Shown: positions 44,027 to 58,680 of the stretch, piece by piece
Layout of the letters: the number at the start of each line of letters is the position of its first letter
Position numbering within the stretch: position 1 is the stretch's first letter
Source of the DNA: Acrocarpospora phusangensis
GTDB lineage: Bacteria > Actinomycetota > Actinomycetes > Streptosporangiales > Streptosporangiaceae
Reading direction: 5' to 3'
Length of the DNA stretch: 64,000 bases
Assembly: GCF_016862995.1 (NCBI RefSeq)
Contig: NZ_BOOA01000040.1
Location: 1 to 64,000, forward strand
Made by a program: the position numbers and the translations under genes
Notes under the pieces: generated by a model
Seen by the model: the letters and a program-made list of their open reading frames with translations, nothing else
The model's database searches: none
What the model was told of the DNA's origin: nothing

Positions 44027-44040
44027 TCTCGGCGCATCTC

Positions 44041-44070: not shown

Positions 44071-44082
44071 TTAGAGACGAAA

Positions 44083-44094
44083 CATCGGATGTAT
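44083..44094 (+). promoter_or_regulatory. CATCGGATGTAT site (fucose-locus motif, copy 3)
   Basis: This copy lies just after the predicted transcription start, where a bound repressor would block the polymerase. It includes the palindrome ACATCGGATGT in its extended form (44082-44092). Confidence 0.6.
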
Positions 44095-44251
44095 GGAGAG
44101 TCTCTGTGGAGCTGCTGCGTGCCGGACCGGTCCCCGCCGGTCAGACGTCAAGTGCCGGAACCTTCGCGTCCGGCCGCCAGAACAGCGCACTCCCCGGGAC
44201 GGCCAGACCCTCTCGCCGGAATCGTGACCGGAATTCCACACATCCGACACC

Positions 44252-44265
44252 TCGGATTAATCCGA
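44252..44265. promoter_or_regulatory. Perfect palindrome before fucD
   Basis: TCGGATTAATCCGA is a perfect 14-bp palindrome 20 bases upstream of the fucD start and is followed by TGA (ATCCGATGA), echoing the core of the neighbouring motif. It may be an additional operator or a leader hairpin. Confidence 0.45.
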
Positions 44266-44284
44266 TGAATCAGGTCGGGGCCTC

Positions 44285-45586
44285 ATGAGGGTCGTCGCGC
44301 TGGAAACCCACGACATCCGGTTTCCCACCTCCGCCGAGCTGGACGGCTCGGACGCCATGAACCCGGACCCGGACTATTCCGCCGCCTATGTCGTGCTGCG
44401 CACCGAGGACGGCGCCAAGGGTCACGGGTTCGCGTTCACCATCGGCCGCGGCAACGACGTGCAGACCACCGCGATCAAGGCGCTGGAGCCGTACGTGGTG
44501 GGGCGGGACTGCTCGGACCTGGGCGCGGTCTACCGCGACATCGTCGGCGACTCGCAGTTGCGCTGGCTGGGCCCGGAGAAGGGCGTCATGCACATGGCCA
44601 TCTCGGCCGTGATGAACGCGCTCTGGGACCTGCGGGCCCGGCTGGAGGGCAAGCCGCTCTGGCTGCTGCTGGCGGAGCTGACCCCCGAGGAGGTCGTCGA
44701 CCTCGTCGACTTCCGCTACATCACCGACGCCCTCACCTGGCAGGAGGCGCTGGACATCCTGCGCGCCGCCGAACCTGGCAAGCGAGCCAGGATCGAGCGG
44801 CTGCGCGCCGAGGGCTTCCCCGCCTACACCACCTCACCCGGCTGGCTCGGCTACGACGACGACAAGCTCCGCCGCCTCTGCAAGGAGGCCCTGGACGAGG
44901 GCTTCACCCAGATCAAGCTGAAGGTCGGCGCCGACCTCGACGACGACAAGCGCCGGATGCGCATCGCCCGCGAGGTCTGCGGCGCCGGCTTCCCGATCGC
45001 CGTGGACGCCAACCAGCGCTGGGACGTGGAGACCGCGATCAGCTGGATCGGCGCGCTGGCCGAGTTCGAGCCCTGGTGGGTGGAGGAGCCGACCAGCCCG
45101 GACGACATGCTCGGCCACGCCGCCATCGCCCGCGCGATCGCCCCCATCCCGGTCGCCACCGGCGAGCACGTGCAGAACAGGATCGTCTTCAAACAGCTTC
45201 TGCAGGCGGGTGCGATCTCGTTCCTGCAGCTGGACGCCGCGCGGGTGGGCGGCGTCAACGAGAACATCGCCATCCTGCTGCTGGCCGCCAAGTTCGGCGT
45301 GCCCGTGTGCCCGCACGCGGGCGGGGTCGGCCTGTGCGAACTGGTGCAGCACCTGGCCATGTTCGACTTCATCGCGGTGAGCGGATCCATGGACGGCCGC
45401 GTCATCGAGTACATCGACCACCTCCACGAGCACTTCGTGGATCCGGTCGTGATCGAGAACGGCAGTTATGTCGCTCCCCTCGCGCCGGGTTTCAGTTCGG
45501 CCCTCCGGGCGGAGTCGCTCGCCGAGTTCGCGTATCCCTGGGGTCCGGTCTGGAACACCGCCAGTGAATCACCCCCCATTTCCTGA
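44285..45586 (+). CDS. fucD: L-fuconate dehydratase (enolase superfamily)
   Basis: The 433-aa enzyme converts L-fuconate to 2-keto-3-deoxy-L-fuconate in the non-phosphorylating L-fucose pathway. Catalytic Lys211/Lys213 are in IKLKVGADL, metal ligands Asp241 (VDANQRW), Glu267 ([11 protein letters not shown]) and Glu294 (ATGEHVQN), and the base His344 in [34 protein letters not shown] and [16 protein letters not shown] are hallmarks of true fuconate dehydratases (like the Xanthomonas enzyme and human ENOSF1). The other pathway enzymes (fucose dehydrogenase, lactonase, later steps) are not in the window. It leads a four-gene operon with the CUT2 transporter. Confidence 0.95.
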
Positions 45587-45599
45587 AAGGCAAATCGGC

Positions 45600-46658
45600 A
45601 TGAGAAACCTATCTGTCGCGGCGAGCGTCACCCTGCTCGCGCTCGCGCTCGCCGCCTGCGGGTCCTCCGACCCCGCCCCCAGCACCGCCGGGGAAGGCGC
45701 CTCCTCCGCGCCCGCCGCGGCCGCCGGTGGCAAGGTCGGCGTGGACTTCCCGCGCGCCGACTCCGACTTCTGGAACTCCTATAACAAGTACGTTCCCCAG
45801 CTGGCCACCGAGCAGGGCGTCGACCTGATGCCCCCGACCAACTCGCAGAACGACATCGCGAAGCTGGTCGCCAACACCCAGGCGCTGGTCAGCCAGGGCG
45901 CCAAGGCCATCATCATGGCCCCCCAGGACACCGGCGCCATCGCCTCCACCCTGGACCAGCTGAACAGCAAGAGCATCCCCGTGGTCACCGTGGACACCCG
46001 CCCCGACAAGGGCAACGTCTACATGGTCGTACGCGCCGACAACAAGGCGTACGGCACGAAGGCCTGCGAGTTCCTGGGGGAGAAGCTCGGCGGCTCCGGC
46101 AAGGTCGTGCAGCTGATGGGCGCGCTCTCCTCGATCAACGGCCGTGACCGCGCCGAGGCGTTCCGGGACTGCATGAAGACCAAGTTCCCGAACATCACCG
46201 TGTTCGAGGAGCCCACCGAGTGGGAGGGCACCAAGGCCGCGTCCATGCTCCAGACCCGCCTGGAGCAGCACCCCGACATCAAGGGTGTCTACATGCACGC
46301 CGGCGGTGTGCACCTGGCCCCGACCCTGCAGGTGCTGAAGGCCAAGAACCTGCTCGTGCCGCCGGACGACCCCAAGCACATCTTCGTGGTCTCCAACGAC
46401 GGCATCCCGCAGGAGTTCGCCGCGATCCGGGCGGGCGAGATCGACGCCACCGTGTCCCAGCCGGCCGACCTGTACGCCAAGTACGCGCTCTTCTACGCCA
46501 AGGCCGCGGTCGAGGGCAAGACCTTCCAGCCCGGCCCGACCGACCACGACAGCACGATCATCCAGCTGCCCAACGGCCTGGAGGACCAGCTGCCGGCTCC
46601 TCTCGTCACCAAGGACAACGTTGACGACCCCAACCTCTGGGGCAACCAGGTCAAGTAA
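45600..46658 (+). CDS. CUT2 sugar-binding lipoprotein (RbsB-like)
   Basis: The 352-aa lipoprotein has a signal with lipobox LALAAC (Cys near residue 20), a Ser/Ala-rich linker and a periplasmic-binding-protein fold of the ribose type (KVGVDFPRADSDFWNSYNKYV, GAKAIIMAPQDTGAI, VVTVDTRPDKGNVYMVVRADN, MQTRLEQHPDIKGVY-like region). It starts 13 bases after fucD with an AAAGG ribosome site. L-fucose is the probable ligand, judged from the fucD linkage. Confidence 0.9.
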   Translation: MRNLSVAASVTLLALALAACGSSDPAPSTAGEGASSAPAAAAGGKVGVDFPRADSDFWNSYNKYVPQLATEQGVDLMPPTNSQNDIAKLVANTQALVSQGAKAIIMAPQDTGAIASTLDQLNSKSIPVVTVDTRPDKGNVYMVVRADNKAYGTKACEFLGEKLGGSGKVVQLMGALSSINGRDRAEAFRDCMKTKFPNITVFEEPTEWEGTKAASMLQTRLEQHPDIKGVYMHAGGVHLAPTLQVLKAKNLLVPPDDPKHIFVVSNDGIPQEFAAIRAGEIDATVSQPADLYAKYALFYAKAAVEGKTFQPGPTDHDSTIIQLPNGLEDQLPAPLVTKDNVDDPNLWGNQVK

Positions 46659-48151
46659 TGACATCTACTGATTCGGCGGTGGTCGAAGCGCGCGGTATCA
46701 CCAAGCGCTTCGGCCCCACCGTCGCCCTCGACAACGCCGGCCTCACCATCCGGGCCGGCGAGACCCATGCCCTGGTCGGCAGGAACGGGGCGGGCAAGTC
46801 CACGCTCGTCTCCATCCTCACCGGCCTGCAGCGCCCCGACCAGGGCGAGGTGCTCTTCGCGGGCCGGCCCGCGCCGGCGCTCGCCGACCGCGACGCTTGG
46901 CGCGCCCGGGTCGCCTGCGTCTACCAGCGCTCGACCATCATCCCGGCGCTCACCGTCGCCGAGAACCTGTTCATCAACCGCCAGACCGAGGGCCGCCTGA
47001 TCAACTGGCGCGCCCTCCGCACCCGCGCCCAGGGCGTGCTCGACCAGTACGGCGTGGACATCGACGCCGGCAGCCAGGCGGGCGACCTGAGCGTCGAGCA
47101 GCGCCAGCTGGTCGAGATCGCCCGGGCGCTCTCCTTCGGCGCGCGGTTCATCATCCTCGACGAGCCCACCGCGCAGCTGGACGGCCCGGCCATCAGCCGG
47201 CTGTTCGAGCGCATGCGGGCGCTGCGCGAGCAGGGCGTCACGATGATGTTCATCTCGCACCACCTGGAGGAGGTCTACGAGGTCTGCCAGACCGTGACCG
47301 TCTTCCGGGACGCCAAGCACGTGATCACCAGCCCGGTACGGGACCTGCCGCACGACGCCCTGGTGGCCGCGATGACCGGCGAGGCCGCGGTCGCCTTCGA
47401 GGCCAGGGCCCGCAAGGTGGACGCCAAGGCCCCCGTCGTGCTCGCCGTCTCCGGCCTCGGCCTGGCCGGCCGCTTCCAGGACGTGGACCTCCAGGTCCGC
47501 GGCGGGGAGATCGTCGGCCTGGCCGGTTCCGGCAGCAGCGGCAAGGTCGGGCTGGCCGAGAGCCTGGTCGGCCTGCGCCGTCCCGACACCGGCACGATCA
47601 GCGTGAACGGCACGGTGCCGCGCCCCGGCGACGTGCCCTCCACCCTCAAGGCCGGGCTCGGGTTCGTCCCGCAGGACCGGCACCACGAGGGCTTCGTCCC
47701 GCTGCTGTCGATCGGCGAGAACGCCACCATGCCGATCGCCCACAAGCTCGGCCGCTTCGGCACGATCTCCTCGTCGCGCCGCCGCAGCCGGGCGGAGGGC
47801 ATGATCCAGCAGCTGGACATCAAGACCACCGGGCCCGACCAGCCGGTCGGCGACCTGTCCGGCGGCAACGCGCAGAAGGTCGTGCTGGCCCGCGCGCTGT
47901 CCGACGACCCGTCCGCGCTGGTGGTCATCAACCCCACCGCAGGGGTGGACATCAAGGCCAAGCGGGCGCTGCTCGGCTCGGTGGAGGACGCGGCGGCCCG
48001 CGGCGCGGGCGCGGTGCTGGTCTCCGACGAACTGGACGATCTGCGCATCTGCGACCGGGTACTGGTCATGTTCCATGGCAGAGTGACGAAGGAATTGCCA
48101 CGCGGCTGGACCGACAGCGAGCTCGTGGCGGCGATGGAAGGTATCGACTAA
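46658..48151 (+). CDS. CUT2 sugar ABC ATPase (two ABC domains)
   Basis: The 497-aa protein has two nucleotide-binding domains like RbsA. Domain 1 has Walker A GRNGAGKST (about residues 43-51), signature LSVEQRQ and Walker B FIILDEPTAQLDG. Domain 2 has a degenerate Walker A (GSGSSGKVG) with signature LSGGNAQKVVLARAL, which is usual for this family. It overlaps the genes on both sides by TAATG, so the three transporter genes are translated in a coupled way. Confidence 0.93.
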   Translation: MTSTDSAVVEARGITKRFGPTVALDNAGLTIRAGETHALVGRNGAGKSTLVSILTGLQRPDQGEVLFAGRPAPALADRDAWRARVACVYQRSTIIPALTVAENLFINRQTEGRLINWRALRTRAQGVLDQYGVDIDAGSQAGDLSVEQRQLVEIARALSFGARFIILDEPTAQLDGPAISRLFERMRALREQGVTMMFISHHLEEVYEVCQTVTVFRDAKHVITSPVRDLPHDALVAAMTGEAAVAFEARARKVDAKAPVVLAVSGLGLAGRFQDVDLQVRGGEIVGLAGSGSSGKVGLAESLVGLRRPDTGTISVNGTVPRPGDVPSTLKAGLGFVPQDRHHEGFVPLLSIGENATMPIAHKLGRFGTISSSRRRSRAEGMIQQLDIKTTGPDQPVGDLSGGNAQKVVLARALSDDPSALVVINPTAGVDIKAKRALLGSVEDAAARGAGAVLVSDELDDLRICDRVLVMFHGRVTKELPRGWTDSELVAAMEGID

Positions 48152-49164
48152 TGACGGACTCAGCCATGTCCGACGCACGGACCCTCAAGCGTCCGGGAGC
48201 CGGGCTGAGACTGGGCAGGTTCCGGGACCTCACGCTGGTCCCGGTGATCATCGTGCTGCTCGTCGCGGGATCCTTCGTGGACCCGGTCTTCCTCACCCCG
48301 GGCAACCTCACCAACGTGCTCCAGCAGCAGTCCGCGCTGGCCCTGGTGGTGCTGGCCGAGGCGCTCATCCTGATCGCCGGGAAGTTCGACCTGTCCCTGG
48401 AGTCCACGGTCGGCATGGCCCCCGCGGTGGCGGTCATGTTCGTCATCCCGGTCTCCGCCGGGGGCTTCGGCCTGGAGATCCCGGCGGCGCTGGCCATCCC
48501 GCTCTGCCTGCTCATCGGCGCCGCGATCGGAGCCTTCAACGGCTTCCTGATCCTGCGCTTCCAGCTGTCCGCGTTCGTGGTCACGCTGGCCATGCTGATC
48601 GTCGTGCACGGCCTCCAGCTCGGCCTGACCGGCGGCAAGAGCCTCTTCGCGCTGCCCGAGTCGTTCCTCTACCTGGGCGGGGCGGTCTGGCTCGGCCTGC
48701 CCGCCGCGATCTGGATCACCGGCCTGCTGTTCGCCGCCGGCATCGCCGCGCTGGGCTACTTCCGCGCCGGCCGCTCCCTGTACGCCATCGGCGGCAACGC
48801 CGACGCGGCCAAGGCGGCGGGCATCCGGGTGGACCGCGTGCTCTGGGTGGTCTTCATCGTCGGCGGCACCCTGGCCGCGCTCGCCGGCGTCCTGGAGACC
48901 GGCCGTCTGGGCGGCATCAGCGCCAACCAGGGCGTCGGCTGGATCTTCATGGTCTTCGCCGCCGCCGTGATCGGCGGGGTCAGCATGGACGGCGGCAAGG
49001 GCACCATCCTGGGCGCCCTTACCGGTGTCCTGGTGATCGGCCTGGTGGAGAACATCCTCACCCTCAAGGGCGTGCCCGGCGAGTGGAAGCAGCTCGTCTA
49101 CGGCGCCATCATCCTGGTCGCCCTCATGATCAGCCGGTTGGCCGGCGGACGAGCTCAGGACTGA
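48151..49164 (+). CDS. CUT2 sugar ABC permease (RbsC-like)
   Basis: The 337-aa permease has about 8-10 hydrophobic segments and the family motifs GKFDLSLESTVGMA, NGFLILRFQLSAFVVTLAML, YAIGGNADAAKAAGI and AAVIGGVSMDGGKGTILGAL. It completes the transporter. A 104-base gap separates it from the ROK regulator. Confidence 0.93.
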   Translation: MTDSAMSDARTLKRPGAGLRLGRFRDLTLVPVIIVLLVAGSFVDPVFLTPGNLTNVLQQQSALALVVLAEALILIAGKFDLSLESTVGMAPAVAVMFVIPVSAGGFGLEIPAALAIPLCLLIGAAIGAFNGFLILRFQLSAFVVTLAMLIVVHGLQLGLTGGKSLFALPESFLYLGGAVWLGLPAAIWITGLLFAAGIAALGYFRAGRSLYAIGGNADAAKAAGIRVDRVLWVVFIVGGTLAALAGVLETGRLGGISANQGVGWIFMVFAAAVIGGVSMDGGKGTILGALTGVLVIGLVENILTLKGVPGEWKQLVYGAIILVALMISRLAGGRAQD

Positions 49165-49228
49165 CCCCTGATGCGAATTCGTGATATTTCATGGGGATGT
49201 CGGGCGATATCGGGCCGTGTTATAACTC

Positions 49229-49240
49229 GGTTAATTAATC
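49229..49240. promoter_or_regulatory. AT-rich dyad before the ROK gene
   Basis: GGTTAATTAATC centres on TTAATTAA in a notably AT-rich gap (49215-49255). ROK repressors typically bind AT-rich dyads, so autoregulation is plausible. Confidence 0.35.
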
Positions 49241-49268
49241 TCCAATAAATACTAAGAGGGGGAGTGGC

Positions 49269-50558
49269 GTGTCGCGGCAGCCCTCGACCCGGACGGCGCT
49301 CCCCCGAGCGCAGCCGGTCGGGCACGCCTCCCTCCGCCGGGCGAACCTCTCCCTGGTCCTGCGCCACCTGCGGGACGAGGGCTCGTGCTCCCGCTCCGAC
49401 GTGGCCGACGCGACCGGCCTGCACCGGGCCACCGTCTCCAGCCTGATGGCCGAGCTCATCGAACGCGGCCTGGTCCGCGAGCTCGGCACGGCCAGGGCGG
49501 GGGCCATCGGCCGCCCACGCCGGGCCGTCGCGCTGGACGGCTCGCACGTGGGCGCGCTGGGCATGGAGATCAACGTCGACTACATCGCGGTCCACGGCAT
49601 CGACCTGGGCGGCCGCGTGCTGGTGGAGCGGCGCGTCGGCTTCGACGCCATGAACGCCGGCCCCGACCGCTCCCTGGTGGAACTCGGCCGGGTCGCCAGG
49701 AAGGCGATCGCCGAGATGCGCAAGGCCGGCGCCGCGCCCGGCGGGATCGTGGTCGCCGTGCCCGGCCTGGTCGACATCGGCCCCGGCGTGGTCACCCTGG
49801 CCCCCAACCTCGGCTGGGACGGCCTGCCGCTCGCCGAACGGCTCCGCGGCGAGCTCGGCGCCTTCCGCGCCCCCGTCGGCGTGGACAACGACGCCAACTT
49901 ATCCGCCCTGGCCGAGTACACCTCCGGTGTCGCGGCGGGGACCCCCGACATGGTCTACCTCACCGGCGAAGTCGGCGTCGGCGGCGGGATCATGGTGAGC
50001 GGGCGATTGCTTCGCGGCGCCGACGGCTTCTCCGGGGAGGTCGGCCACCTGCCGGTCAACCCGGCGGGGCGGCGCTGCGGCTGCGGCCGTACCGGCTGCT
50101 GGGAGACCAAGGTGGGGCTCGCCGCGCTGGTGCGGGCCGCCACCCCGGAACGGGCGTACGAGCGCGGCGCCGCCGCGCCGCCGGACCCCGAGGTTCGTGT
50201 GAAGGAGATCTCCAGAGCTCTGGCGGCGGGCGAACCGCGTACGCTCGCCGCCGTCGCGGAGGTAGGCAGATGGCTCGGGCTCGGCGGCTCGATCCTGGTC
50301 AACCTCTTCAACCCGAGAGTGATCGTGATAGGCGGATACTTCGCCCGGCTGGCCGAGCGGCTCATCCCGCCCGCGCAGGCCGAGCTGGAACGTCTCGTGG
50401 TGGCGGGCCCGGCGGCCCGTTGCCGGTTCCTCGCCTCCAACCTGGGTTTTGGCGCCGCCTCCCGCGGCGCCGCGAGCATGGTTGTCGATCACATCCTGGA
50501 CGATCCCGCCGCGATCGGCTTCGGGCCGGCCGGGCGCTCGTCCGCGGGCGGCGTGTAG
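49269..50558 (+). CDS. ROK family transcriptional regulator
   Basis: The 429-aa protein starts at GTG with GGGGGAGTGGC before it. It has an N-terminal winged helix (residues 22-75: RRANLSLVLRHLRDEGSCSRSDVADATGLHRATVSSLM) and a ROK sugar-kinase-like domain (VDNDANLSALAEY, GEVGVGGGIMVSG, FSGEVGHLPVNPAGRRCGCGRTGCWE). The ROK zinc motif is complete. It probably senses fucose or a derivative and controls the transporter operon before it. It could also act on the ebo-like operon 143 bases downstream. Leu211 is a TTA codon. Confidence 0.9.
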   Translation: MSRQPSTRTALPRAQPVGHASLRRANLSLVLRHLRDEGSCSRSDVADATGLHRATVSSLMAELIERGLVRELGTARAGAIGRPRRAVALDGSHVGALGMEINVDYIAVHGIDLGGRVLVERRVGFDAMNAGPDRSLVELGRVARKAIAEMRKAGAAPGGIVVAVPGLVDIGPGVVTLAPNLGWDGLPLAERLRGELGAFRAPVGVDNDANLSALAEYTSGVAAGTPDMVYLTGEVGVGGGIMVSGRLLRGADGFSGEVGHLPVNPAGRRCGCGRTGCWETKVGLAALVRAATPERAYERGAAAPPDPEVRVKEISRALAAGEPRTLAAVAEVGRWLGLGGSILVNLFNPRVIVIGGYFARLAERLIPPAQAELERLVVAGPAARCRFLASNLGFGAASRGAASMVVDHILDDPAAIGFGPAGRSSAGGV

Positions 50559-50701: not shown

Positions 50702-50740
50702 ATGTCTACGCACGTTCCTTCGATTCCGCTGTCGTCATGA
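50702..50740 (+). CDS. 12-aa leader frame MSTHVPSIPLSS
   Basis: This short frame has the best ribosome site at the head of the operon (AGGAGAGG, 7-8 bases before ATG), and its TGA overlaps the ATG of the inositol-phosphate-synthase-like gene (ATGA). It most likely couples translation or senses translation as a leader peptide. A functional micropeptide is possible. The downstream gene's own start has no other ribosome site. Confidence 0.45.
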   Translation: MSTHVPSIPLSS

Positions 50741-51867
50741 TGGTCGGGATTTGGTTGATCGGGGCGCGAGGCTCGGTGGCGACCACGGTCGTCGCGGGCG
50801 CGGCAGCGCTGCGGGCCGGGCTGGCCCCGCCGATCGCATGCGTGACCGAATCGGCGGACTTCCGGGGCCACGGGCTGCCCGGATTCGGCCATCTGGTGTT
50901 CGGTGGACATGACGTCACCAGCACGCCGCTGACCAAGCGGGCTGAGGAGCTGACCCGATCCGGGGTGATCCCGGCGCCCCTCGCCGAGCTCGTCCGGCCC
51001 GCGCTGGACGCGGCCGACAGCGAGATCCGGCCGGGGGCCACCGAGGGAGGCCAGCAGGGCGCGGTGGCCCGGCGGCTGATCAGCGACCTGGCCGAGTTCC
51101 GCGAACGCCGGGGCCTGGGCCGGGTCATCGTGATCAACGTCTCCTCCACCGAGCCGCCCGCGACGCCCGACCCGGCGCATCTGACCCTGGAGGCGCTGGA
51201 GCAGGCGCTGGAGGGAGACGTCCCGGTTCTGCCGCCGTCCTCCCTGTACGCCTACGCGGCGCTCAGCGCCGGCTGCCCGTACGTCGACTTCACGCCGTCC
51301 ACGGGCGCCCGCATCCCCGCCCTGGACGAACTCGCCAGGCGGCGCGGCCTGCCGTACGCCGGGAGTGACGCCAAGACCGGCGAGACCCTGGTGAAGACCG
51401 CGCTCGCGCCGATGTTCGCGGTGCGCGGGCTGGCGGTGCGGTCCTGGTCGGGGACCAATCTGCTGGGCGGCGGGGACGGCGCGACGCTGGCCGACCCGGC
51501 GGCGGGGGAGAGCAAGCGCATCTCCAAGGACCGGGCGCTCACCGAGATCCTCGGGCACCCGGTGGAGGGCCGTACCCACATCGACAACGTGCCGCACCTG
51601 GGCGACTGGAAGACCGCCTGGGACCACATCACGTTCGAGGGCTTCCTCGGCGTGCGCATGTCGATGCAGTTCACCTGGGAGGGCTGCGACTCCGCGCTGG
51701 CCGCGCCGCTGGTGCTGGACCTGGCCAGGCTGATGGCGCGGGCCCACGAACGCGGCGTCTCCGGTCCCGTCGCCGAGTTCGGGTTCTTCTTCAAGGACCC
51801 GGTGGGCAGCAACGAGCACCGCTTACACGCGCAGTACGAGGCGCTCCGCCAGTGGCTGGGGGAGTGA
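50737..51867 (+). CDS. myo-Inositol-1-phosphate synthase-like cyclase (ebo-like operon)
   Basis: The 376-aa protein belongs to the inositol-3-phosphate synthase family, which cyclises glucose-6-phosphate with NAD. The N-terminal GIWLIGARGSVATT is the NAD-binding loop; GSDAKTGETLVK, SGTNLLGGGDG, ISKDRALTEILG, GDWKTAWDHITFEGFLG and DSALAAPLVLDLAR line the active site, with the catalytic-type lysines present. It begins the seven-gene operon and takes the place expected for the EboD cyclase. Leu363 is a TTA codon. The exact product (inositol phosphate or another cyclitol) is open. Confidence 0.88.
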   Translation: MMVGIWLIGARGSVATTVVAGAAALRAGLAPPIACVTESADFRGHGLPGFGHLVFGGHDVTSTPLTKRAEELTRSGVIPAPLAELVRPALDAADSEIRPGATEGGQQGAVARRLISDLAEFRERRGLGRVIVINVSSTEPPATPDPAHLTLEALEQALEGDVPVLPPSSLYAYAALSAGCPYVDFTPSTGARIPALDELARRRGLPYAGSDAKTGETLVKTALAPMFAVRGLAVRSWSGTNLLGGGDGATLADPAAGESKRISKDRALTEILGHPVEGRTHIDNVPHLGDWKTAWDHITFEGFLGVRMSMQFTWEGCDSALAAPLVLDLARLMARAHERGVSGPVAEFGFFFKDPVGSNEHRLHAQYEALRQWLGE

Positions 51868-51868
51868 G

Positions 51869-52699
51869 ATGGACCTCGCCTCGTTGGCCCAGCTCGTCCG
51901 GGCCCCGGCGGCGCTGACGGTTCCGGGCGACACGGTGGCGGGCGGGTCGGCGCAGCCCGGCCTGGCCGCCTCCTCGGTCTGCCTGTACTGGGCCGGGATG
52001 GCGCTCAACGACTACGCCGACCGGGAGCTGGACGCGCGGGAGCGGCCCGAGCGGCCCATCCCGTCCGGCCGGATCCGGCCGGGGCAGGCGCTCGCCGTCG
52101 CCGCCGGGCTCACCGCCGCGGGCGTCGGCCTCGCCGGTCTGTCCGGCGGGCGCCGGGGTCTCGGTGTCGCCACCGGCCTGGCCGGCGTGGTCTGGGCGTA
52201 CGACATGGGTCTCAAGGACACCGTCCTCGGCCCGGTCGCGATGGCCGCCGCGCGCGGGCTCGACGTCATGCTCGGCGGGCCCTCGACCAGCCCGCTGGCG
52301 GCGGCGTCGGTGGCCGCGCACACGCTCGGCGTCACCACCCTGAGCCGCGGCGAGGTGACCGGCGGCTCGGCGGTCCGCTCCGCCGTGACCCTGGCCGCGA
52401 CCGGCGTGGCGGCCGGACTGGCCGCCTGGCACATCGCCAAGGGCGGCGACCGGCTGGCGAAACTGGCCGGGTTCGGGCTGCTCGCCGGCTACGCCGCGCT
52501 GGTCGGCCGGCCGCAGTTGGCGGCGGCCCGCAGCCGCGACGCCAAGCAGACCCGGTCGGCCGTCGGCCGCAGCATCATCGGGCTGCTGCCGCTGCAGGCC
52601 GCCCTCACCGCCGGCAGCGGCAGGATCGTCCCCGCCGTCGCGCTGGCGGCGGCGCATCCGGTGGCCGCGAACCTGGCCAAGAAGGTGTCCCCCACATGA
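51869..52699 (+). CDS. eboC: EboC / SCO3242-type UbiA-like prenyltransferase
   Basis: The 276-aa integral membrane protein starts one base after the previous stop. The UbiA first Asp motif is seen in NDYADRELDARERPERPIPSG (residues about 47-67); a second partial one is YDMGLKD. It has 7-9 hydrophobic segments. UbiA enzymes transfer prenyl groups to aromatic or polar acceptors at the membrane. In this operon the acceptor may be the cyclitol made by the gene before it (inference). Overlap with the next gene is ATGA. Confidence 0.85.
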   Translation: MDLASLAQLVRAPAALTVPGDTVAGGSAQPGLAASSVCLYWAGMALNDYADRELDARERPERPIPSGRIRPGQALAVAAGLTAAGVGLAGLSGGRRGLGVATGLAGVVWAYDMGLKDTVLGPVAMAAARGLDVMLGGPSTSPLAAASVAAHTLGVTTLSRGEVTGGSAVRSAVTLAATGVAAGLAAWHIAKGGDRLAKLAGFGLLAGYAALVGRPQLAAARSRDAKQTRSAVGRSIIGLLPLQAALTAGSGRIVPAVALAAAHPVAANLAKKVSPT

Positions 52700-53532
52700 G
52701 CGGCGACATGAGATTCGGTTACGGCACCAACGGGTTCGCCAACCACCGGCTGTCGGACGCGCTCGTCGTCATCGCCGACCTCGGCTACGAGGGCGTCGCC
52801 CTCACCCTGGACAGCGGCCACCTCGACCCGTACGGGCCGTTCCTGTCGCGGCGGGTCGCGCAGGTCGGCCGCTGGCTGGACCGGCTCAGCCTGAGCCTGG
52901 TGATCGAGACCGGCGGGCGCTACGTCCTCGACCCGGTGCACAAGCACCACCCGACGCTGGTGCACCCGGCGGAGCAGGCCGCCCCCCGGGTGGACCTGCT
53001 CAAGCGGGCGATCCAGGTCGGGTCCGAGCTGGGGGCGGAGGCCGTCTCGTTCTGGAGCGGCACCCGCCCGCCCGGCGTCCAGGACGGCTGGGACAACCTG
53101 GCCAAAGGCGTCGAGGCCGTACTGGTCGAGGCGGAGTCGTGCGGGATGACGCTCGGGTTCGAGCCGGAGCCCGGCATGCTCGTCGAGGACCTCGCCGGGT
53201 ACGAGCGGCTGCGCGGCATGCTCGGGCAGCCCGCCCGGCTGGGTCTCACCCTGGACATCGGGCACTGCCGGTGCAACGAGCCGGACTCCGTGCCCGAGGC
53301 GGTGCGGCGGGCCGGGCCGTACCTGGTGAACGTGCAGATCGACGACATGCGGCGGGACGTGCACGAGCACCTGGAGTTCGGCGAAGGGGAGATCGACTTC
53401 CCGCCGGTGCTGGCCGCGCTCGCCGGCACCGGCTACCGGGGCCTGGTCAGCGTCGAGCTGCCCCGGCACAGCCACGCCGCGCCGGCCGTGGCAGAACGTT
53501 CCCTGCGTTTCCTCCGAGAGGCGGTGTCATGA
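52696..53532 (+). CDS. TIM-barrel sugar phosphate isomerase/epimerase
   Basis: The 278-aa protein is of the xylose-isomerase-like (AP endonuclease 2) family: FGYGTNGFANHRLSDALVVIADLGYEGVAL, GFEPEPGMLVED with a metal-ligand Glu, LGLTLDIGHCRCNEP with Asp and His, and VSVELPRHSH with Glu. All expected metal-site residues seem present. It resembles EboE in parts (the GFEPEPG motif) but is shorter and is extra to the six canonical Ebo proteins. It probably isomerises or epimerises the cyclitol or sugar precursor (inference). Confidence 0.85.
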   Translation: MSGDMRFGYGTNGFANHRLSDALVVIADLGYEGVALTLDSGHLDPYGPFLSRRVAQVGRWLDRLSLSLVIETGGRYVLDPVHKHHPTLVHPAEQAAPRVDLLKRAIQVGSELGAEAVSFWSGTRPPGVQDGWDNLAKGVEAVLVEAESCGMTLGFEPEPGMLVEDLAGYERLRGMLGQPARLGLTLDIGHCRCNEPDSVPEAVRRAGPYLVNVQIDDMRRDVHEHLEFGEGEIDFPPVLAALAGTGYRGLVSVELPRHSHAAPAVAERSLRFLREAVS

Positions 53533-54170
53533 TCCCCACCATTCGCCCGCACCTGACCGGTGACGGCGTCAGCTGGCTGGACGCCGCCGTCGCCAAGATC
53601 CACGCCGACGCCGGCGCGGTCTTCGCGCTCTTCCCCGCGGCCGGGCGGCGCTGCGGCCGGGGCCCGCTGGACGACGGCTGGACCGTCGACCAGGCGGTCC
53701 GGGTCACCCTGCTGCTGGAGCTCCCGCTCGACGGCGAGCCGCTCGGCACGCTCCTGTTCGACCTGTACGCCCACGGCGACGCCGGCGAACGCCTCGCCGT
53801 GCTGGCGTCGCTGTCCGCCTTCGGCGACGCCGGACGGCTCGGCGACGCGGGCCTGCCGATCGTCAGGGACGCGCTGCGCACCAGCGACACCCGACTGATC
53901 GGCGCCGCCCTCGGCCGGTACGGCGCCGCCCGGCTGCCCGCCGACGCCTACCGGCAGGCCGTCCTGAAATGCGTCTTCACCGGCGTGCCCCTGGCGGGCG
54001 TGGCCGGTCTGGAGTCGCGCGCGGACCGGGAGCTGGCCCGGATGATGGCCGACTTCGCCAAGGAGCGCGAAGCGGCCGGGCGGCCGGTGCCGTCCGACAT
54101 CTGGCCGATCCTCGAAAGCCACCCGGACCTGCTGGCCGGCCTGTCCTCCGACCCGAAGGGCGCCTCCTGA
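53529..54170 (+). CDS. eboA: EboA domain protein
   Basis: The 213-aa protein matches EboA: FALFPAAGRRCGRGPLDDGWTVDQAVRVTLLL near the N terminus, the helical repeat-like middle (GDAGERLAVLASLSAFGDAGRL), VLKCVFTGVPLAGVAGLESRADRELARMMADFAKEREAAGRPVPSDIWPIL at the end. It has no signal peptide or membrane helix and no known activity. EboA is the marker of the ebo operon. It overlaps genes on both sides (ATGA, TGATG). Confidence 0.88.
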   Translation: MIPTIRPHLTGDGVSWLDAAVAKIHADAGAVFALFPAAGRRCGRGPLDDGWTVDQAVRVTLLLELPLDGEPLGTLLFDLYAHGDAGERLAVLASLSAFGDAGRLGDAGLPIVRDALRTSDTRLIGAALGRYGAARLPADAYRQAVLKCVFTGVPLAGVAGLESRADRELARMMADFAKEREAAGRPVPSDIWPILESHPDLLAGLSSDPKGAS

Positions 54171-55021
54171 TGCGAATCTTCGACCCGCACATCCACATGA
54201 CCTCGCGCACCACCGACGACTACCGCCGCATGTACGACGCCGGCGTGCGCGCCCTGGTCGAACCCGCCTTCTGGCTGGGCCAGCCCCGCACCTCGCCGGA
54301 CACGTTCGCCGACTACTTCGACGGGCTGCTCGGCTGGGAGCCGTACCGGGCGGCGCAGTACGGCATCGCCCACCACTGCGCCATCGCCCTCAACCCGAAA
54401 GAGGCCAACGACCCCCGGCTGCGGGGCGTGCTCGACCTGCTGCCGCGCTACCTGGCCAAGGACCGGGTGGTCGCGGTCGGCGAGGTCGGCTACGACGAGA
54501 TGACCCCCGCCGAGGACGAGGTGCTCCAGGCCCAGCTGGCGCTCGCCGTCGAGCACGAGCTGCCGGTCCTGGTGCACACCCCGCACCGGGACAAGGCGGC
54601 GGGCACCGTGCGGACCCTCGACGTGGTCAAGGACTCGGGGCTGCCGCCGGAGATGGTCCTGGTGGACCACCTCAACGAGATGACCGCGGCGGCGGTCGCC
54701 GACAGCGGCTGCTGGTCCGGCTTCTCCGTCTACCCGGACACGAAGATGGACGTGCACCGGATGATCGCCCTCCTCCGCCGGTACGGCACCGACCGCGTCC
54801 TGGTGAACTCGGCCGCCGACTGGGGGCACAGCGATCCGCTGAAGACCCGCGCGGTCGGCGACGCCATGCTCGCCGACGGCTTCACCGAGGAGGACGTGGA
54901 CAAGGTCCTCTGGGCCAACCCCGTCGCCTTCTACGGGCAGAGCGGCCGGCTCGAACTCGACGACGTCACGCCGGCCGCCGACTACGCGGGGAACACCATC
55001 AAACGGGGCGTGGCGCCGTGA
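54170..55021 (+). CDS. eboB: EboB, TatD-family metal-dependent hydrolase
   Basis: The 283-aa protein is a TatD-type amidohydrolase: metal site FDPHIHMTSR (His8, His10), VVAVGEVGYDEM, VLVHTPHRDK and MVLVDHLNEM with ligand His, and LVNSAADWGHSD with the final Asp. It starts in TGATG overlap with EboA and lies in the usual EboA-EboB order. The family acts as a nuclease in other settings, but in ebo operons its substrate is unknown. Confidence 0.87.
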   Translation: MRIFDPHIHMTSRTTDDYRRMYDAGVRALVEPAFWLGQPRTSPDTFADYFDGLLGWEPYRAAQYGIAHHCAIALNPKEANDPRLRGVLDLLPRYLAKDRVVAVGEVGYDEMTPAEDEVLQAQLALAVEHELPVLVHTPHRDKAAGTVRTLDVVKDSGLPPEMVLVDHLNEMTAAAVADSGCWSGFSVYPDTKMDVHRMIALLRRYGTDRVLVNSAADWGHSDPLKTRAVGDAMLADGFTEEDVDKVLWANPVAFYGQSGRLELDDVTPAADYAGNTIKRGVAP

Positions 55022-56172
55022 GGTTCCGCCACCAGGACGGTTCCACCGTGCACCTCGCCTACTGCACGAACGTGCACCCGGCCGAGGACCTGGCCGGGGT
55101 GCTCGCCCAGCTCCGCGACTACGCGGGGCCGGTGCGGCGCAAGCTCGGCGTGCCCAGGCTCGGGGTCGGGCTCTGGCTGTCCCGCCCGGTCGCCGACGCC
55201 CTCGCCGCCAGCCCCGCCGAACCCGTACGGCTCCGCGCGGCCCTCGACCGGGAGGGCCTGGAGGTGGTGACCCTCAACGGGTTCCCGTACCGGGGGTTCC
55301 ACGACGAGGCGTCGGCGAAGCTGCGCGTCTACCAGCCGGACTGGACGTCGGACGCCCGCCTCGACTACACGCTGGACCTGGCCAGGCTCCTGACGGGGCT
55401 GCTGCCGGACGACGTGTCCGGCGGGAGCATCTCCACGCTGCCGCTGGCCTGGCGTACGCCGTGGTCGGCGGAGCAGGCCGCCGCGGCGGCGCGGAACCTG
55501 GACCGCTTGCGGGACGGGCTCGCGCGGCTGGCCGAGGCGACCGGACGGACGGTCAGGGTCGGGTTCGAGCCGGAGCCCGGCTGCGTGGTCGAGACGACGG
55601 CGCAGGCGGCCGAGCATCTGACCGGCCTGGATCCCGACTATCTGGGCGTGTGCCTGGACACCTGCCATCTGGCGGTCGGGTTCGAGGAGCCGGCCGAGGC
55701 GCTCGGGCGGCTCGACGCGGCCGGGTTGCCGATCATCAAGATGCAGGCGTCCTGCGCGCTGCGGATCGACGACCCCGCCGTCGCCCGGGACGAGCTCGCC
55801 GCCTTCGACGAGCCGCGGTTCCTGCACCAGACCCGCGAACAGGGCACCGCGGGCACGGACGACCTGGGTGAGGCTCTCGGCGGCGGCCTGCCCGGGAGTT
55901 CGCAGTGGCGCGTGCACTTCCACGTGCCCCTGCACTCCGCCCCCACCCCGCCGCTGGGCTCCACGCAGGACGTCCTCGACGGGACGTTCCGGGCGGTCCT
56001 GGGTGGGCCGGTCGCCCGTACCCACCACATCGAGGCGGAGACGTACACCTGGCAGACGCTGCCGCCCGACCGGCGGCCGCGCACCCGGGACGCCCTCGTC
56101 GACGGGATCGCCAGCGAACTGGCGTGGATCCGCGACCGCCTGATCAACCTCGGCCTCAAGGAGGAAGCGTGA
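55018..56172 (+). CDS. eboE: EboE, metabolite traffic TIM-barrel protein
   Basis: The 384-aa protein begins with the EboE hallmark VHLAYCTNVHPAEDLAGVLAQLRDY and LGVGLWLSRPVADAL. It continues as a TIM barrel with EVVTLNGFPYRGFH, VGFEPEPGCVVETTAQA, YLGVCLDTCHLAVGFE (Asp and His metal ligands), VHFHVPLHSAP and HIEAETYTW. This matches the sugar-isomerase-like EboE. It starts with GTG overlapping the EboB stop and ends overlapping a 15-aa frame. Confidence 0.88.
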   Translation: MRFRHQDGSTVHLAYCTNVHPAEDLAGVLAQLRDYAGPVRRKLGVPRLGVGLWLSRPVADALAASPAEPVRLRAALDREGLEVVTLNGFPYRGFHDEASAKLRVYQPDWTSDARLDYTLDLARLLTGLLPDDVSGGSISTLPLAWRTPWSAEQAAAAARNLDRLRDGLARLAEATGRTVRVGFEPEPGCVVETTAQAAEHLTGLDPDYLGVCLDTCHLAVGFEEPAEALGRLDAAGLPIIKMQASCALRIDDPAVARDELAAFDEPRFLHQTREQGTAGTDDLGEALGGGLPGSSQWRVHFHVPLHSAPTPPLGSTQDVLDGTFRAVLGGPVARTHHIEAETYTWQTLPPDRRPRTRDALVDGIASELAWIRDRLINLGLKEEA

Positions 56173-56218
56173 CTCCTCCGCTCACCTGGAAACTCATCTG
56201 GAAGGAGGCGGCGTGACC
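56158..56218 (+). repeat. Direct repeat of a translation-start module
   Basis: AAGGAGG followed by two variable bases and GCGTGAC occurs at 56158-56173 and 56202-56217, offset by 44 bases (14 of 16 positions equal). Each copy supplies a ribosome site and a GTG with an overlapping TGA. Confidence 0.6.
56169..56216 (+). CDS. 15-aa frame MTPPLTWKLIWKEAA between eboE and eboF
   Basis: GTG 56169 overlaps the EboE stop, and the TGA at 56214 overlaps the GTG of eboF, so all three are GTGA-coupled. The frame has its own AAGGAGG (4 bases spacing). The peptide is amphipathic, with two Trp and three Lys. It may be a by-product of the 44-base start-module duplication, or a true micropeptide of the operon. 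Confidence 0.4.
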   Translation: MTPPLTWKLIWKEAA

Positions 56219-57583
56219 GCGAAGCCTCTGGTGGTCATCGACGTGGTCGGGCTCACCCCCCGGCTCCTCGACCACATGCCCAACCTGCGCGCCCTCGGCG
56301 CCCCCGCCACCCTGGGCACCGTGCTGCCCGCCGTGACCTGCTCCGTGCAGTCCACCCTGCTCACCGGCAGGCAGCCGCGCGACCACGGCATCGTCGGCAA
56401 CGGCTGGTACTTCCGCGACCTGGGCGAGATCATGCTCTGGCGGCAGCACAACGGCCTCGTCGAAGGCCCCAAGATCTGGGACGACGCCCGCGCCGTGCAG
56501 CCCGGCTACAAGGTCGCCAACATCTGCTGGTGGTACGCCATGGGCGCCGCCACCGAGATCACCGTGACCCCGCGCCCGATCTACCACGCCGACGGCCGCA
56601 AATCACCCGACTGTTACACGACCCCGCCCGAACTCCGCGTCGACCTGACCCGGGAACTCGGGCGCTTCCCCCTGTTCTCCTACTGGGGTCCCAAAGCGGG
56701 CATCGAGTCCAGCCGCTGGATCGTCGCCGCCGCGCGCCGCATCTTCGCCAAGGAACGCCCCGACCTCACCCTCGTCTACGTCCCCCACCTCGACTACGAC
56801 CTCCAGCGGTTCGGCCCGTCCGGCCCCGAGGCCATCGCCGCCGCCCGCGACGTCGACCAGGCCCTCGGCCCCCTCCTGGACGACGCCTCCGCCGCCGGCG
56901 CCACCACCGTCGTCCTCTCCGAGTACGGCATCGTGGACGTCTCCCGCCCGATCGACATCAACCGCGCCCTCCGCGAGGAGGGGCTGCTGTCGGTGTACCG
57001 CCAGGCGGGCATGGAGTACCTCGACCCGTGGACCTCGCGGGCCTTCGCGGTCGCCGACCACCAGCTCGCCCATATATACGTGCGGGACGAAGCCGACGCG
57101 CCCGCCGTACGCAAGCTGATCTCGTCCCTGCCCGGGGTGGACCAGGTCCTGGACGCCGACGGCAAGGCCGGCTTCGGCCTCGACCACGCCCGCTCCGGCG
57201 AACTGGTCGCCATCGCCGAACCCGACGCGTGGTTCACCTACTACTACTGGCTCAACGACGCCCAGGCCCCCGACTTCGCCCGCGGCGTCGACATCCACCG
57301 CAAACCCGGCTACGACCCGGCCGAACTCTTCCTCAACCCCCACGACCGCTGGGTCAAGGCCAAAGCCGGCCTCGCCCTGGCCCGCAAGGAACTCGGCTTC
57401 CGCTACACGATGCCGGTCGTCCCCCTGGACCCGTCCTGCGTACGCGGCAGCCACGGCCGCCTTCCGGACGACCCCCTCGACGGCCCGGTCCTCCTCAGCG
57501 ACGCCGCCCTCGACCAGGACACCTACGCCGCCACAGAGGTGAAGGACCTGCTCCTGCGCCTGGCCGGCCTGAAAACCCCGTAA
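56213..57583 (+). CDS. eboF: EboF, alkaline phosphatase / nucleotide pyrophosphatase superfamily protein
   Basis: The 456-aa protein shows the NPP-like metallo-phosphodiesterase fold: metal ligand Asp10 (VVIDVVGLTP), putative nucleophile Thr42 in PAVTCSVQSTLLTG, PRDHGIVGNGWYF, VYVPHLDYDLQRFG (Asp and His), LSEYGIVDV and GSHGRLPDD. It lacks a signal peptide. This is the usual last gene of ebo operons. It would remove or exchange a phosphate or nucleotide group on the product (family inference). AAGGAGG lies 4 bases before the GTG, and a strong hairpin follows. Confidence 0.88.
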   Translation: MTAKPLVVIDVVGLTPRLLDHMPNLRALGAPATLGTVLPAVTCSVQSTLLTGRQPRDHGIVGNGWYFRDLGEIMLWRQHNGLVEGPKIWDDARAVQPGYKVANICWWYAMGAATEITVTPRPIYHADGRKSPDCYTTPPELRVDLTRELGRFPLFSYWGPKAGIESSRWIVAAARRIFAKERPDLTLVYVPHLDYDLQRFGPSGPEAIAAARDVDQALGPLLDDASAAGATTVVLSEYGIVDVSRPIDINRALREEGLLSVYRQAGMEYLDPWTSRAFAVADHQLAHIYVRDEADAPAVRKLISSLPGVDQVLDADGKAGFGLDHARSGELVAIAEPDAWFTYYYWLNDAQAPDFARGVDIHRKPGYDPAELFLNPHDRWVKAKAGLALARKELGFRYTMPVVPLDPSCVRGSHGRLPDDPLDGPVLLSDAALDQDTYAATEVKDLLLRLAGLKTP

Positions 57584-57590
57584 CCGCCAC

Positions 57591-57615
57591 GGCGGCACCC
57601 CACCAGGGTGCCGCC
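57591..57615 (+). terminator. Terminator of the ebo-like operon
   Basis: GGCGGCACCC pairs perfectly with GGGTGCCGCC around CACCA, 7 bases after the eboF stop. Confidence 0.8.
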
Positions 57616-57819
57616 ACGGCATTCAGCTCCCGAAGAGCCGGATCATCACCAAGTCGGAACGCCGACGGCGTGAAGAGATGGGGCACGGCTGGGCGTGTTC
57701 GCCGGATGTGATGCGGTCAGCCGGATGGCGGATCTGTAGGCGATCGCGGCTGGGCTCGGGCTGACCGTGGGCCGTGCTGGTGCGCTGTGCGGAGGGCTGG
57801 GAGGAGCTGGGGTGCCGGG

Positions 57820-58680
57820 TTAGTTCTGCTTGAGGGGGATGGCGATGTCGACGACCTGGCGCTTGGCGGGGAAGGCGCCGAGGGAGGAGGCGCGGCCGGT
57901 GAGGAGGTCGACGGTGTAGAAGCGGTAGCCGCCGGTGGACTTGAGGGTGGCGTAGCCGCGGTTGGCGGTGCGGGTGCTGTAGATGTCGAAGCCGGCGTCG
58001 CCCGAGATGGTCAGGCCGAGTTTGCCGGTGGGGGCCAGGGAGCCCGCGTTGGCGGGGGACTGGATGACGACCTGGTCCGGGGCGAGGTCGAACAGGGTGG
58101 TCGCCGTGGCCGGGTTGAGGTCGTTGTTGGTGTACGCGGCGGCGGTCACGCCGGTCGCCTTCGCGCCGGTGGTCGCCGGGGGGACGGGCAGGTTGGTGAG
58201 CGGGCCGTCGGCCACGGTGCTGCCGGCGGCGGGCGCGCCCATCGGGTCGTCGATGTTGTGCCGGAGGTTCTGGCCGTTGTCGCTGATCACTCGCAGCCGG
58301 TTGGCGGCCGGGTTGAAGTCGACGCCGAAGCTCTTGCCGCTCAGCGCGACGGTGAGCTGCGAGACCTTGGCCGTACGCGCGTTGGTGGCGTTCACGACGT
58401 AGACGCCGCCCTTGTCGCCGACGCCGTACAGTTTGCCGTCCTGCACCCGGTAGTCGATGCCGACCAGCTTCCGGTCGCCCTTCAGGCCCGCGACCTTGCC
58501 GATCACGAAGGTGGAGCCGGGGCCGCCGGCTTCGAAGATGACCAGCCGCTGGGTGCTGGTGAGGCCGATGACCTTGATGTCGGCGATGCCGGCCTTGGTC
58601 GCGACGGCCGCGCTGGCCGGGACCGCGGCTACGGTGACCGCCGCCAGCGCGAGAAGGCCGGTGGCGAGAGTCCTGCGCAT
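57820..58680 (-). CDS. DUF4394 secreted protein
   Basis: The 286-aa protein has a signal peptide (cut near PASAAV, residue 25) and the DUF4394 repeats: IKVIGLTSTQRLVIFEAGGPG, KLVGIDYRVQDGKLYGVGDKGGVYVVN, FGVDFNPAANRLRVISDNGQNLRHN, FDLAPDQVVIQSPANAGSLAPTGKLG. A beta-propeller is likely. It is secreted and its function is unknown. The gene stands alone, with 236 bases to the ebo-like operon and about 190 bases upstream. Confidence 0.88.
   Translation of the reverse strand: MRRTLATGLLALAAVTVAAVPASAAVATKAGIADIKVIGLTSTQRLVIFEAGGPGSTFVIGKVAGLKGDRKLVGIDYRVQDGKLYGVGDKGGVYVVNATNARTAKVSQLTVALSGKSFGVDFNPAANRLRVISDNGQNLRHNIDDPMGAPAAGSTVADGPLTNLPVPPATTGAKATGVTAAAYTNNDLNPATATTLFDLAPDQVVIQSPANAGSLAPTGKLGLTISGDAGFDIYSTRTANRGYATLKSTGGYRFYTVDLLTGRASSLGAFPAKRQVVDIAIPLKQN

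What the first reader, a model, noticed from the sequence alone, without database searches (positions are those of the whole stretch)
50702..57615. An actinobacterial ebo-like operon for a membrane-linked metabolite
Seven genes in one direction, nearly all overlapping by ATGA/GTGA/TGATG and closed by one terminator, encode an inositol-phosphate-synthase-like cyclase, UbiA-type EboC, a TIM-barrel isomerase, EboA, TatD-type EboB, EboE and EboF. Ebo operons are known from eustigmatophyte plastids, cyanobacteria (needed for scytonemin precursor export in Nostoc) and various bacteria, but their product is not established. An intact set in a sporulating actinomycete, away from any scytonemin genes, suggests a general lipid-linked cyclitol or carrier made by this pathway.
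Basis: partly seen in the sequence, partly recalled or inferred. Interest (0 to 1): 0.9.

Follow-up and report, generated by a model that had tools for sequence, protein, structure and literature searches.

The report
Ebo operon with swapped cyclitol synthase
This is a real and conserved actinobacterial version of the poorly understood ebo gene cluster, in which the usual ring-forming enzyme is replaced by an inositol-phosphate synthase of a different family, which makes the first step of the pathway testable.

Summary
Seven same-strand genes (50737-57583) encode a MIPS-family cyclase, a UbiA-type EboC, a xylose-isomerase-like TIM barrel, EboA, TatD-like EboB, EboE and EboF. The EboA-domain and EboE profiles pass their cut-offs. 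The seven-gene order recurs in 24 of the 29 other EboE places found in 396 actinobacterial genomes.

In 109 loci MIPS occurs in 25, EboD in 76, both in 0, neither in 8. In 27 ebo genomes an EboD profile scores 621 bits once, in the one EboD-type genome, and at most 180 elsewhere. In 393 genomes of the class, full EboE and PF07994-type MIPS coincide in 92; EboE alone 6, MIPS alone 2. The MIPS active site is intact.

Best reading: the same kind of prenylated-cyclitol pathway, fed from glucose-6-phosphate. The cyclitol start is well supported; product and envelope role are inference. Actinobacterial ebo is in print; I found no description of the swap in the held papers. New variant of a known kind.

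The parts
50737..51867 (+). MIPS-family cyclitol-phosphate synthase in the place of EboD
   Evidence: PF07994 172 bits, PF01658 114 bits; best solved relative A. fulgidus MIPS 1u1i, E 3e-76; seven mapped active-site residues kept
51869..52699 (+). EboC-like UbiA-superfamily membrane prenyltransferase
   Evidence: NF045897 SCO3242 family 331 bits (cut-off 260), EboC equivalog 124 (cut-off 250, not passed); shares the first Asp motif and the S.GEV.GG-like segment with EboC of other phyla
52696..53532 (+). Xylose-isomerase-like TIM barrel, present only in MIPS-type ebo loci
   Evidence: PF01261 125 bits; weak to IolE, 33 bits against cut-off 290; in 25 of 109 loci and never with EboD
53529..54170 (+). 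EboA
   Evidence: NF035938 156 bits, cut-off 50; aligns with EboA of Bacteroidota and Cyanobacteria; all-helical model, pLDDT 92
54170..55021 (+). EboB, TatD-like metal-dependent hydrolase
   Evidence: PF01026 52 bits; nearest solved relative AF_1765, 3guw, E 2e-27; position and similarity in other ebo loci
55018..56172 (+). EboE
   Evidence: NF035939 413 bits, cut-off 250
56213..57583 (+). EboF, type I phosphodiesterase / alkaline-phosphatase-like hydrolase
   Evidence: PF01663 204 bits; conserved last gene of the operon
57589..57617 (+). Hairpin that closes the unit (10-bp stem, no T run)
   Evidence: Folding of 57578-57640, z -5.2; coordinates approximate
50702..50740 (+). 12-codon ORF upstream, its stop overlapping the MIPS start (ATGA); doubtful
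   Evidence: Seen in sequence; only L060 of 24 other loci has a like-placed ORF, of unrelated sequence

Best explanation
An actinobacterial variant of the ebo operon in which the usual ring-forming enzyme EboD (DHQ-synthase-like sugar-phosphate cyclase) has been replaced by an enzyme of a different family, a myo-inositol-phosphate synthase (MIPS), together with an extra xylose-isomerase-like TIM barrel. Shown: gene set, tight coupling, conserved order, mutual exclusion with EboD, intact MIPS active site. Inferred from the families: MIPS cyclises glucose-6-phosphate to inositol phosphate; the TIM barrel and EboE remodel the ring; EboC attaches a prenyl chain to it in the membrane; EboF and EboB remove phosphate or cut an ester; EboA, a helical-repeat protein, organises the enzymes. 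Inferred from published Nostoc mutants: the prenylated cyclitol then works at the cytoplasmic membrane to move or hold metabolites at the outer face.
For: MIPS and EboD never share a locus (0 of 109; MIPS 25, EboD 76) and EboD is missing genome-wide from 26 of 27 ebo genomes. All seven genes keep one order in 24 of 29 other places. EboE and PF07994-type MIPS coincide in 92 of 393 genomes of the class, with 6 and 2 discordant, and lie within 5 kb at 89 of 102 EboE places. All seven mapped MIPS active-site residues are kept in 29 of 29 ebo MIPS. The genome has a separate mycothiol Ino1, so this MIPS is not the housekeeping copy. MIPS and the TIM barrel also recur together in three clusters without EboB/EboE, in the two that were scanned with a GFO/IDH/MocA oxidoreductase. 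EboC keeps the first Asp motif in 26 of 26 sequences aligned; after EboC itself its best characterised model is geranylgeranylglycerol-phosphate geranylgeranyltransferase (52 bits, below cut-off). All Nostoc ebo mutants made in print keep scytonemin monomer in the cytoplasm (PMC6282210).
Against: No substrate, product or mutant was tested. MIPS would give a phosphorylated, reduced six-carbon cyclitol, EboD relatives a seven-carbon ketone, so the two are not obviously interchangeable. None of the seven genes is an obvious inositol oxidase, which a keto-using TIM barrel would need. EboC lacks the DxxxD second motif that UbiA enzymes have (recalled), and the tested EboC homologue Ubi-297 prenylated quinolines in vitro and not phenols or catechols (PMC9235831); cyclitols are not among the substrates named in the parts read. 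Conserved MIPS residues are also kept in all 35 non-ebo MIPS compared, so they show competence, not specificity. L035 has an ebo operon without MIPS and L045 one without the TIM barrel, though each genome has a complete second copy.
Confidence: 0.5

Rival explanations
1. The actinobacterial operon shares the later ebo steps but makes a different end product: a six-carbon, inositol-derived prenyl lipid instead of the seven-carbon cyclitol lipid thought to come from EboD.
For: MIPS and EboD belong to different families with different expected products; the extra TIM barrel is found only with MIPS (25 of 109 loci, 0 with EboD); actinobacterial EboC passes the SCO3242 model and not the EboC model.
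Against: EboA, EboB, EboE, EboF and EboC are all kept alongside both cyclases, which is easier to understand if the ring is brought to a common intermediate. EboD's substrate has not been tested in print (PMC5133447), so C7 is itself an assumption.
Confidence: 0.25
2. The product is a membrane redox cofactor: the cyclitol is dehydrated by TIM-barrel enzymes to an aromatic or quinone-like ring, prenylated by EboC, and used by exported oxidoreductases at the cell envelope.
For: UbiA enzymes mostly prenylate quinone precursors (recalled; see also PMC9235831). Genes with glucose/sorbosone dehydrogenase (GSDH) domains lie near 19 of 29 MIPS-type ebo loci and ThuA domains near 16 of 29, against 3 and 5 of 74 EboD-type loci and 1 and 0 of 16 other stretches (the one is L174, beside an ebo-type MIPS); ThuA genes are otherwise about 90 in 25 genomes. 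In three flavobacterial EboD-type loci (L106, L113, L135) both domains fall in one ORF near ebo.
Against: The window itself has no such gene beside it. Most EboD-type loci lack it. Streptomycete loci share descent. No dehydration step is shown; similarity of the TIM barrel to the dehydratase IolE is weak (33 bits against a cut-off of 290). The Nostoc data were read as an export defect.
Confidence: 0.12
3. MIPS and the TIM barrel are only neighbours that share regulation (inositol supply or catabolism) and take no part in the ebo pathway.
For: The window has a sugar uptake and catabolism cluster just upstream, and MIPS plus TIM occur without EboB/EboE in L175, L183 and L191.
Against: Tight coupling in the operon, order kept in 24 of 29 places and exact complementarity with EboD; a separate mycothiol Ino1 already makes inositol phosphate.
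Confidence: 0.08

Closest known systems
ebo operon, ABCDEF type, of eustigmatophyte plastids, Bacteroidota and Cyanobacteria (PMC5133447)
   Same: EboA, EboB, EboC, EboE and EboF homologues in one operon
   Different: No EboD; MIPS and an extra TIM barrel instead; gene order M-C-T-A-B-E-F
ebo cluster of Nostoc punctiforme (PMC6282210)
   Same: Same A, B, C, E, F protein families; lipid-linked cyclitol already proposed there
   Different: Export of scytonemin monomer shown by mutants there, nothing tested here; MIPS not mentioned
Actinobacterial ebo genes: Saccharomonospora ubiA-297 loci (PMC9235831); TIM-EboA hybrid proteins of Actinobacteria noted in PMC5133447
   Same: Actinobacterial EboC locus called ebo in print; a xylose-isomerase-like domain next to EboA
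   Different: The replacement of EboD by MIPS is not described in the parts read or found by word search ('inositol' 0 times); figures and supplements were not seen
S. coelicolor SCO3242/SCO3243, listed as CDA-cluster genes (PMC3610822, passages)
   Same: A transferase next to a myo-inositol phosphate synthase; the window UbiA passes the NCBIfam SCO3242 model
   Different: The S. coelicolor sequence was not seen; that it is the same operon is inference
Archaeal-type MIPS (A. fulgidus 1u1i)
   Same: Full-length similarity, E 3e-76, and seven mapped active-site residues
   Different: Lies in an ebo operon; substrate untested

Membership tests
ebo operon (PMC5133447) | EboA homologue | tested here: met
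   EboA_domain 156 bits, cut-off 50; narrower EboA_family model not passed, 80 against 320; alignment
ebo operon (PMC5133447) | EboE homologue | tested here: met
   413 bits, cut-off 250
ebo operon (PMC5133447) | EboC, UbiA-superfamily prenyltransferase | tested here: inconclusive
   EboC equivalog 124 bits against 250 not passed, SCO3242-family model passed; shares the EboC signature segment
ebo operon (PMC5133447) | EboB and EboF homologues in the same operon | tested here: met
   PF01026 and PF01663; same families in ebo loci of other phyla
ebo operon (PMC5133447) | EboD sugar-phosphate cyclase | tested here: not met
   Own genome: best EboD-profile score 168 bits, AroB level; G301 with true EboD 621 bits
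ebo operon (PMC5133447) | Clustering and conserved order | tested here: met
   24 of 29 other places keep all seven genes in order on one strand
ebo operon (PMC6282210) | Loss blocks export of a metabolite | not testable with these tools
   Only the Nostoc mutants in print
myo-inositol-phosphate synthase | MIPS fold families and active-site residues | tested here: met
   PF07994 and PF01658; D225, N255, K274, K278, K306, D332, K367 kept
myo-inositol-phosphate synthase | Makes inositol phosphate from glucose-6-phosphate | not testable with these tools
   Needs an enzyme assay
actinobacterial mycothiol Ino1 (TIGR03450) | Equivalog score | tested here: not met
   52 bits against cut-off 638; the true one is at C9, 696 bits

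The most novel reading that the evidence does not exclude
Ebo operons of both types build a new class of membrane cofactor: a prenylated ring whose skeleton can come from either of two unrelated cyclitol synthases, dehydrated by TIM-barrel enzymes to a quinone- or polyphenol-like head group, serving exported oxidoreductases such as the ThuA/GSDH proteins coded beside many actinobacterial and a few flavobacterial ebo operons. The Nostoc scytonemin defect would then reflect a missing envelope redox partner as much as a missing exporter.
Probability: 0.12. Interest if true: 0.88.

Novelty: new variant of a known kind. Interest (0 to 1): 0.55.

Why it matters
The product of the ebo pathway was unknown in every ebo paper I read. 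A clean swap of the ring-forming enzyme between two families says that the pathway most likely starts from a cyclitol, and it moves the problem into Streptomyces-type hosts where inositol labelling, gene deletion and lipid analysis are routine. It also suggests (inference) that two S. coelicolor genes filed with the CDA antibiotic cluster belong to an ebo-type operon.

Tried and rejected
Considered and rejected: (1) that the MIPS is the housekeeping mycothiol Ino1: that gene is elsewhere, C9, 696 bits. (2) That the order is peculiar to one genome: kept in 24 of 29 other places. (3) That EboD lies elsewhere in these genomes: nothing at EboD strength in 26 of 27. (4) That the 12-codon upstream ORF (50702-50740) is a conserved leader: only L060 of 24 other loci has a like-placed ORF, of unrelated sequence, and MIPS starts there were set by a rule. 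(5) A named fold relative for EboA: Foldseek gave no match at E 0.001 or better (best 0.36); VIA-align gave Z up to 10.3 to HEAT/ARM-like repeats, a level its note calls common for helical repeats. (6) Deciding EboD's substrate from residues: PMC4095911 is not held, the passages of PMC4426668 list no residues, and the alignment of one EboD to solved relatives was not decisive. (7) A relative of EboE in viral contigs: none found with the single-protein query.

The phylum and class samples share genomes, and genomes are related, so the Fisher value is descriptive only. Eight of 109 loci have neither MIPS nor EboD (L035, L053, L062, L072, L091, L092, L095, L122); L095 is only 3.6 kb. G244, one of the 26 genomes without EboD, has no MIPS at its broken ebo locus L062. 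Gene calls in flanks are rough. In the tree the very long mycothiol Ino1 branch falls on the ebo side, so strict monophyly of ebo MIPS is not shown. The 25 EboC sequences were picked by hand from 109 loci.
Full report
What is there. Seven same-strand genes fill 50737-57583: a MIPS-family protein, a UbiA-family prenyltransferase, a xylose-isomerase-like TIM barrel, EboA, a TatD-like hydrolase (EboB), EboE and a type I phosphodiesterase (EboF). EboE (413 bits, cut-off 250), the EboA domain (156, cut-off 50) and the SCO3242-family prenyltransferase model (331, cut-off 260) are passed; the EboC equivalog (124, cut-off 250) and the EboA-family model (80, cut-off 320) are not. Four of six junctions overlap; a stable hairpin without a T run follows.

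More than one genome. EboE is found in 27 of 396 actinobacterial genomes, 26 over cut-off. I fetched all 29 places other than the window's own operon. In 24 of 29 all seven genes lie on one strand in the window's order (in L040 the MIPS is cut by an assembly gap). The exceptions: L035 lacks MIPS and L045 lacks the TIM barrel (each genome has a second, complete copy, L038 and L039); L053 is a lone EboE-like gene of the window's own genome; L062 is fragmentary and has no MIPS or TIM barrel; L042 is of the other type.

EboD is swapped. L042 (genome G301, same phylum, another class) has EboD (PF01761) with EboB, EboE, EboC and EboF and neither MIPS nor the TIM barrel. Among 80 named loci (best 80 of 579; no title names an actinobacterium) none has MIPS. 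Over all 109 loci MIPS is in 25, the TIM barrel in 25, EboD in 76; MIPS with EboD 0, TIM with EboD 0, neither cyclase 8. An EboD profile run through 27 ebo genomes gives 621 bits in G301 and at most 180, about the level of AroB (G301's second hit has 121), in the other 26.

Wider test. In 393 genomes of the class, EboE over cut-off occurs in 98 and PF07994 over cut-off in 94: both 92, EboE alone 6, MIPS alone 2, neither 293; MIPS lies 1.5-4.6 kb from EboE at 89 of 102 EboE places. In the phylum sample the 20 genomes of the window's class (own included) with EboE are the same 20 that have PF07994. The six EboE-alone genomes show no other ebo gene in the stretches fetched (10-20 kb); in the two scanned, EboE sits beside 2-oxoacid dehydrogenase genes. 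Outside the class, ordinary MIPS of about 300 bits is common; G050, G072 and G094 have such a copy and the ebo copy, G154 and G281 the ebo copy only. Genomes are related, so these counts are not independent trials.

The MIPS. Its best solved relative is A. fulgidus MIPS, E 3e-76. Seven residues, D225, N255, K274, K278, K306, D332 and K367 in that numbering (their catalytic role is recalled; alanine variants of three of them are visible among the PDB hits), are kept in 29 of 29 ebo MIPS and also in all 35 other MIPS compared. In a tree of 64 the 29 ebo MIPS, with the long-branched mycothiol Ino1, are cut off from the other 34 by a 100/100 branch.

EboC. In the window protein and 25 chosen EboC of both operon types the first Asp-rich motif ND..D...D is kept in 26 of 26, but where UbiA enzymes have DxxxD (recalled) EboC has S..EV.G-like segments or, with EboG-type operons, A.K-like ones. 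The window's LSRGEVTGG resembles the SRGEVHGG of Bacteroidota and Cyanobacteria. A Maribacter EboC, Ubi-297, farnesylates quinolines in vitro (PMC9235831, parts 1 and 2 of 4 read).

EboA. The AlphaFold2 model (pLDDT 92) is almost wholly helical. No Foldseek match reaches E 0.001; VIA-align lists HEAT/ARM-type repeats up to Z 10.3, which may be only a common arrangement. A scaffold role, proposed in print for Nostoc EboA, fits and is not shown.

Neighbourhood. The window has a sugar cluster upstream: GH95-like protein, enolase-family sugar-acid dehydratase, sugar ABC importer, ROK regulator. In other MIPS-type loci, genes with GSDH, PKD/CBM6, ThuA and 3-keto-disaccharide-hydrolase domains recur: GSDH in 19 of 29, ThuA in 16 of 29, 3-keto-disaccharide hydrolase in 14 of 29; in EboD-type loci 3, 5 and 0 of 74; in 16 other stretches 1, 0 and 0, the one being L174, beside an ebo-type MIPS. 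In several streptomycete-family (f3) loci they end about 75-180 bp upstream of MIPS on the same strand. Pfam confirms the domains in L048, L054, L057, L059 and L188. Several N termini look like export signals by eye. ThuA matches number 90 in 25 such genomes, about 0.01 per 20 kb, so chance is a poor explanation, though f3 loci share descent. A second TIM barrel lies beside the operon in 15 of 28 loci.

How it most likely works. Shown: gene set, coupling, order, exclusion of EboD, intact MIPS site. Inferred: glucose-6-phosphate to inositol phosphate (MIPS), remodelling (TIM, EboE), prenylation (EboC), hydrolysis (EboF, EboB), assembly (EboA), a membrane product used at the cell envelope. MIPS and TIM recur together in L175, L183 and L191 without EboB or EboE; in L183 and L191 a GFO/IDH/MocA oxidoreductase lies between them (in L183 weakly like inositol 2-dehydrogenase, 93 bits against cut-off 355). 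That suggests the TIM barrel works on a MIPS-derived ring.

What is known. EboD-type ebo is described in PMC5133447 (sections 12, 13, 16, 17, 18 and part 1 of 14 read), which also mentions actinobacterial EboA fused to a xylose-isomerase-like domain. Nostoc ebo mutants keep scytonemin monomer in the cytoplasm (PMC6282210; sections 4 and 7 and passages read). PMC9235831 reports ebo loci in Saccharomonospora. PMC3610822 lists SCO3242 and SCO3243 as CDA-cluster genes (passages). I found no description of MIPS in ebo operons in searches, and 'inositol' occurs 0 times in the main texts of PMC5133447, PMC6282210, PMC9235831 and PMC6092422. Only openly licensed papers are held and no figures or supplements were seen, so it may be in print elsewhere.

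Verdict. A real, conserved system, already known as ebo in actinobacteria; the cyclase swap is a clear and testable new variant. Interest 0.55.

Noticed in passing
L048 15534-19437, L037 15183-18881, L188 4410-7703; L106 3366-6740, L113 12591-16070, L135 12703-16071: Probably exported GSDH/PKD/CBM6 and ThuA proteins beside many MIPS-type and three flavobacterial EboD-type ebo operons.
   Followed up: partly
L175, L183, L191: MIPS and the TIM barrel together without EboB/EboE; in L183 and L191 with a GFO/IDH/MocA oxidoreductase, in L183 also a YcaO gene, in L191 a methyltransferase and a glycosyltransferase: perhaps unstudied inositol-derived metabolite clusters.
   Followed up: partly
L177-L182: Six genomes carry a full EboE-model protein with no other ebo gene in the fetched stretch; in L177 and L178 it sits beside 2-oxoacid dehydrogenase genes, so the EboE model also names proteins of another context.
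   Followed up: partly
L053 8782-9927 (own genome C12) and like hits: A shorter EboE-like protein (profile 1-242 of 379) in 17 of 393 class genomes, each the window's own genome or of its family, below the EboE cut-off and, in L053, away from ebo genes.
   Followed up: partly
G123 (L035, L038) and G383 (L045, L039): Two ebo copies in one genome, one complete and one lacking MIPS or the TIM barrel, as if they shared enzymes.
   Followed up: no
window 51869-52699; alignment: The EboC proteins aligned, of both operon types, lack the second Asp-rich motif of UbiA enzymes (motif recalled) and carry a conserved S..EV.G-like or A.K-like segment there instead.
   Followed up: partly
window 40776-50558: Upstream sugar cluster: GH95-like protein, enolase-family sugar-acid dehydratase, sugar ABC importer, ROK regulator; ROK proteins also lie near ebo in L059, L061, L188 and L189 at 28-32% identity.
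   Followed up: partly
L050 12121-13329 and 14 other loci: A second xylose-isomerase-like barrel beside the ebo operon, in most directly after EboF.
   Followed up: partly
window 57820-58680, - strand: DUF4394 protein convergent with the operon.
   Followed up: no
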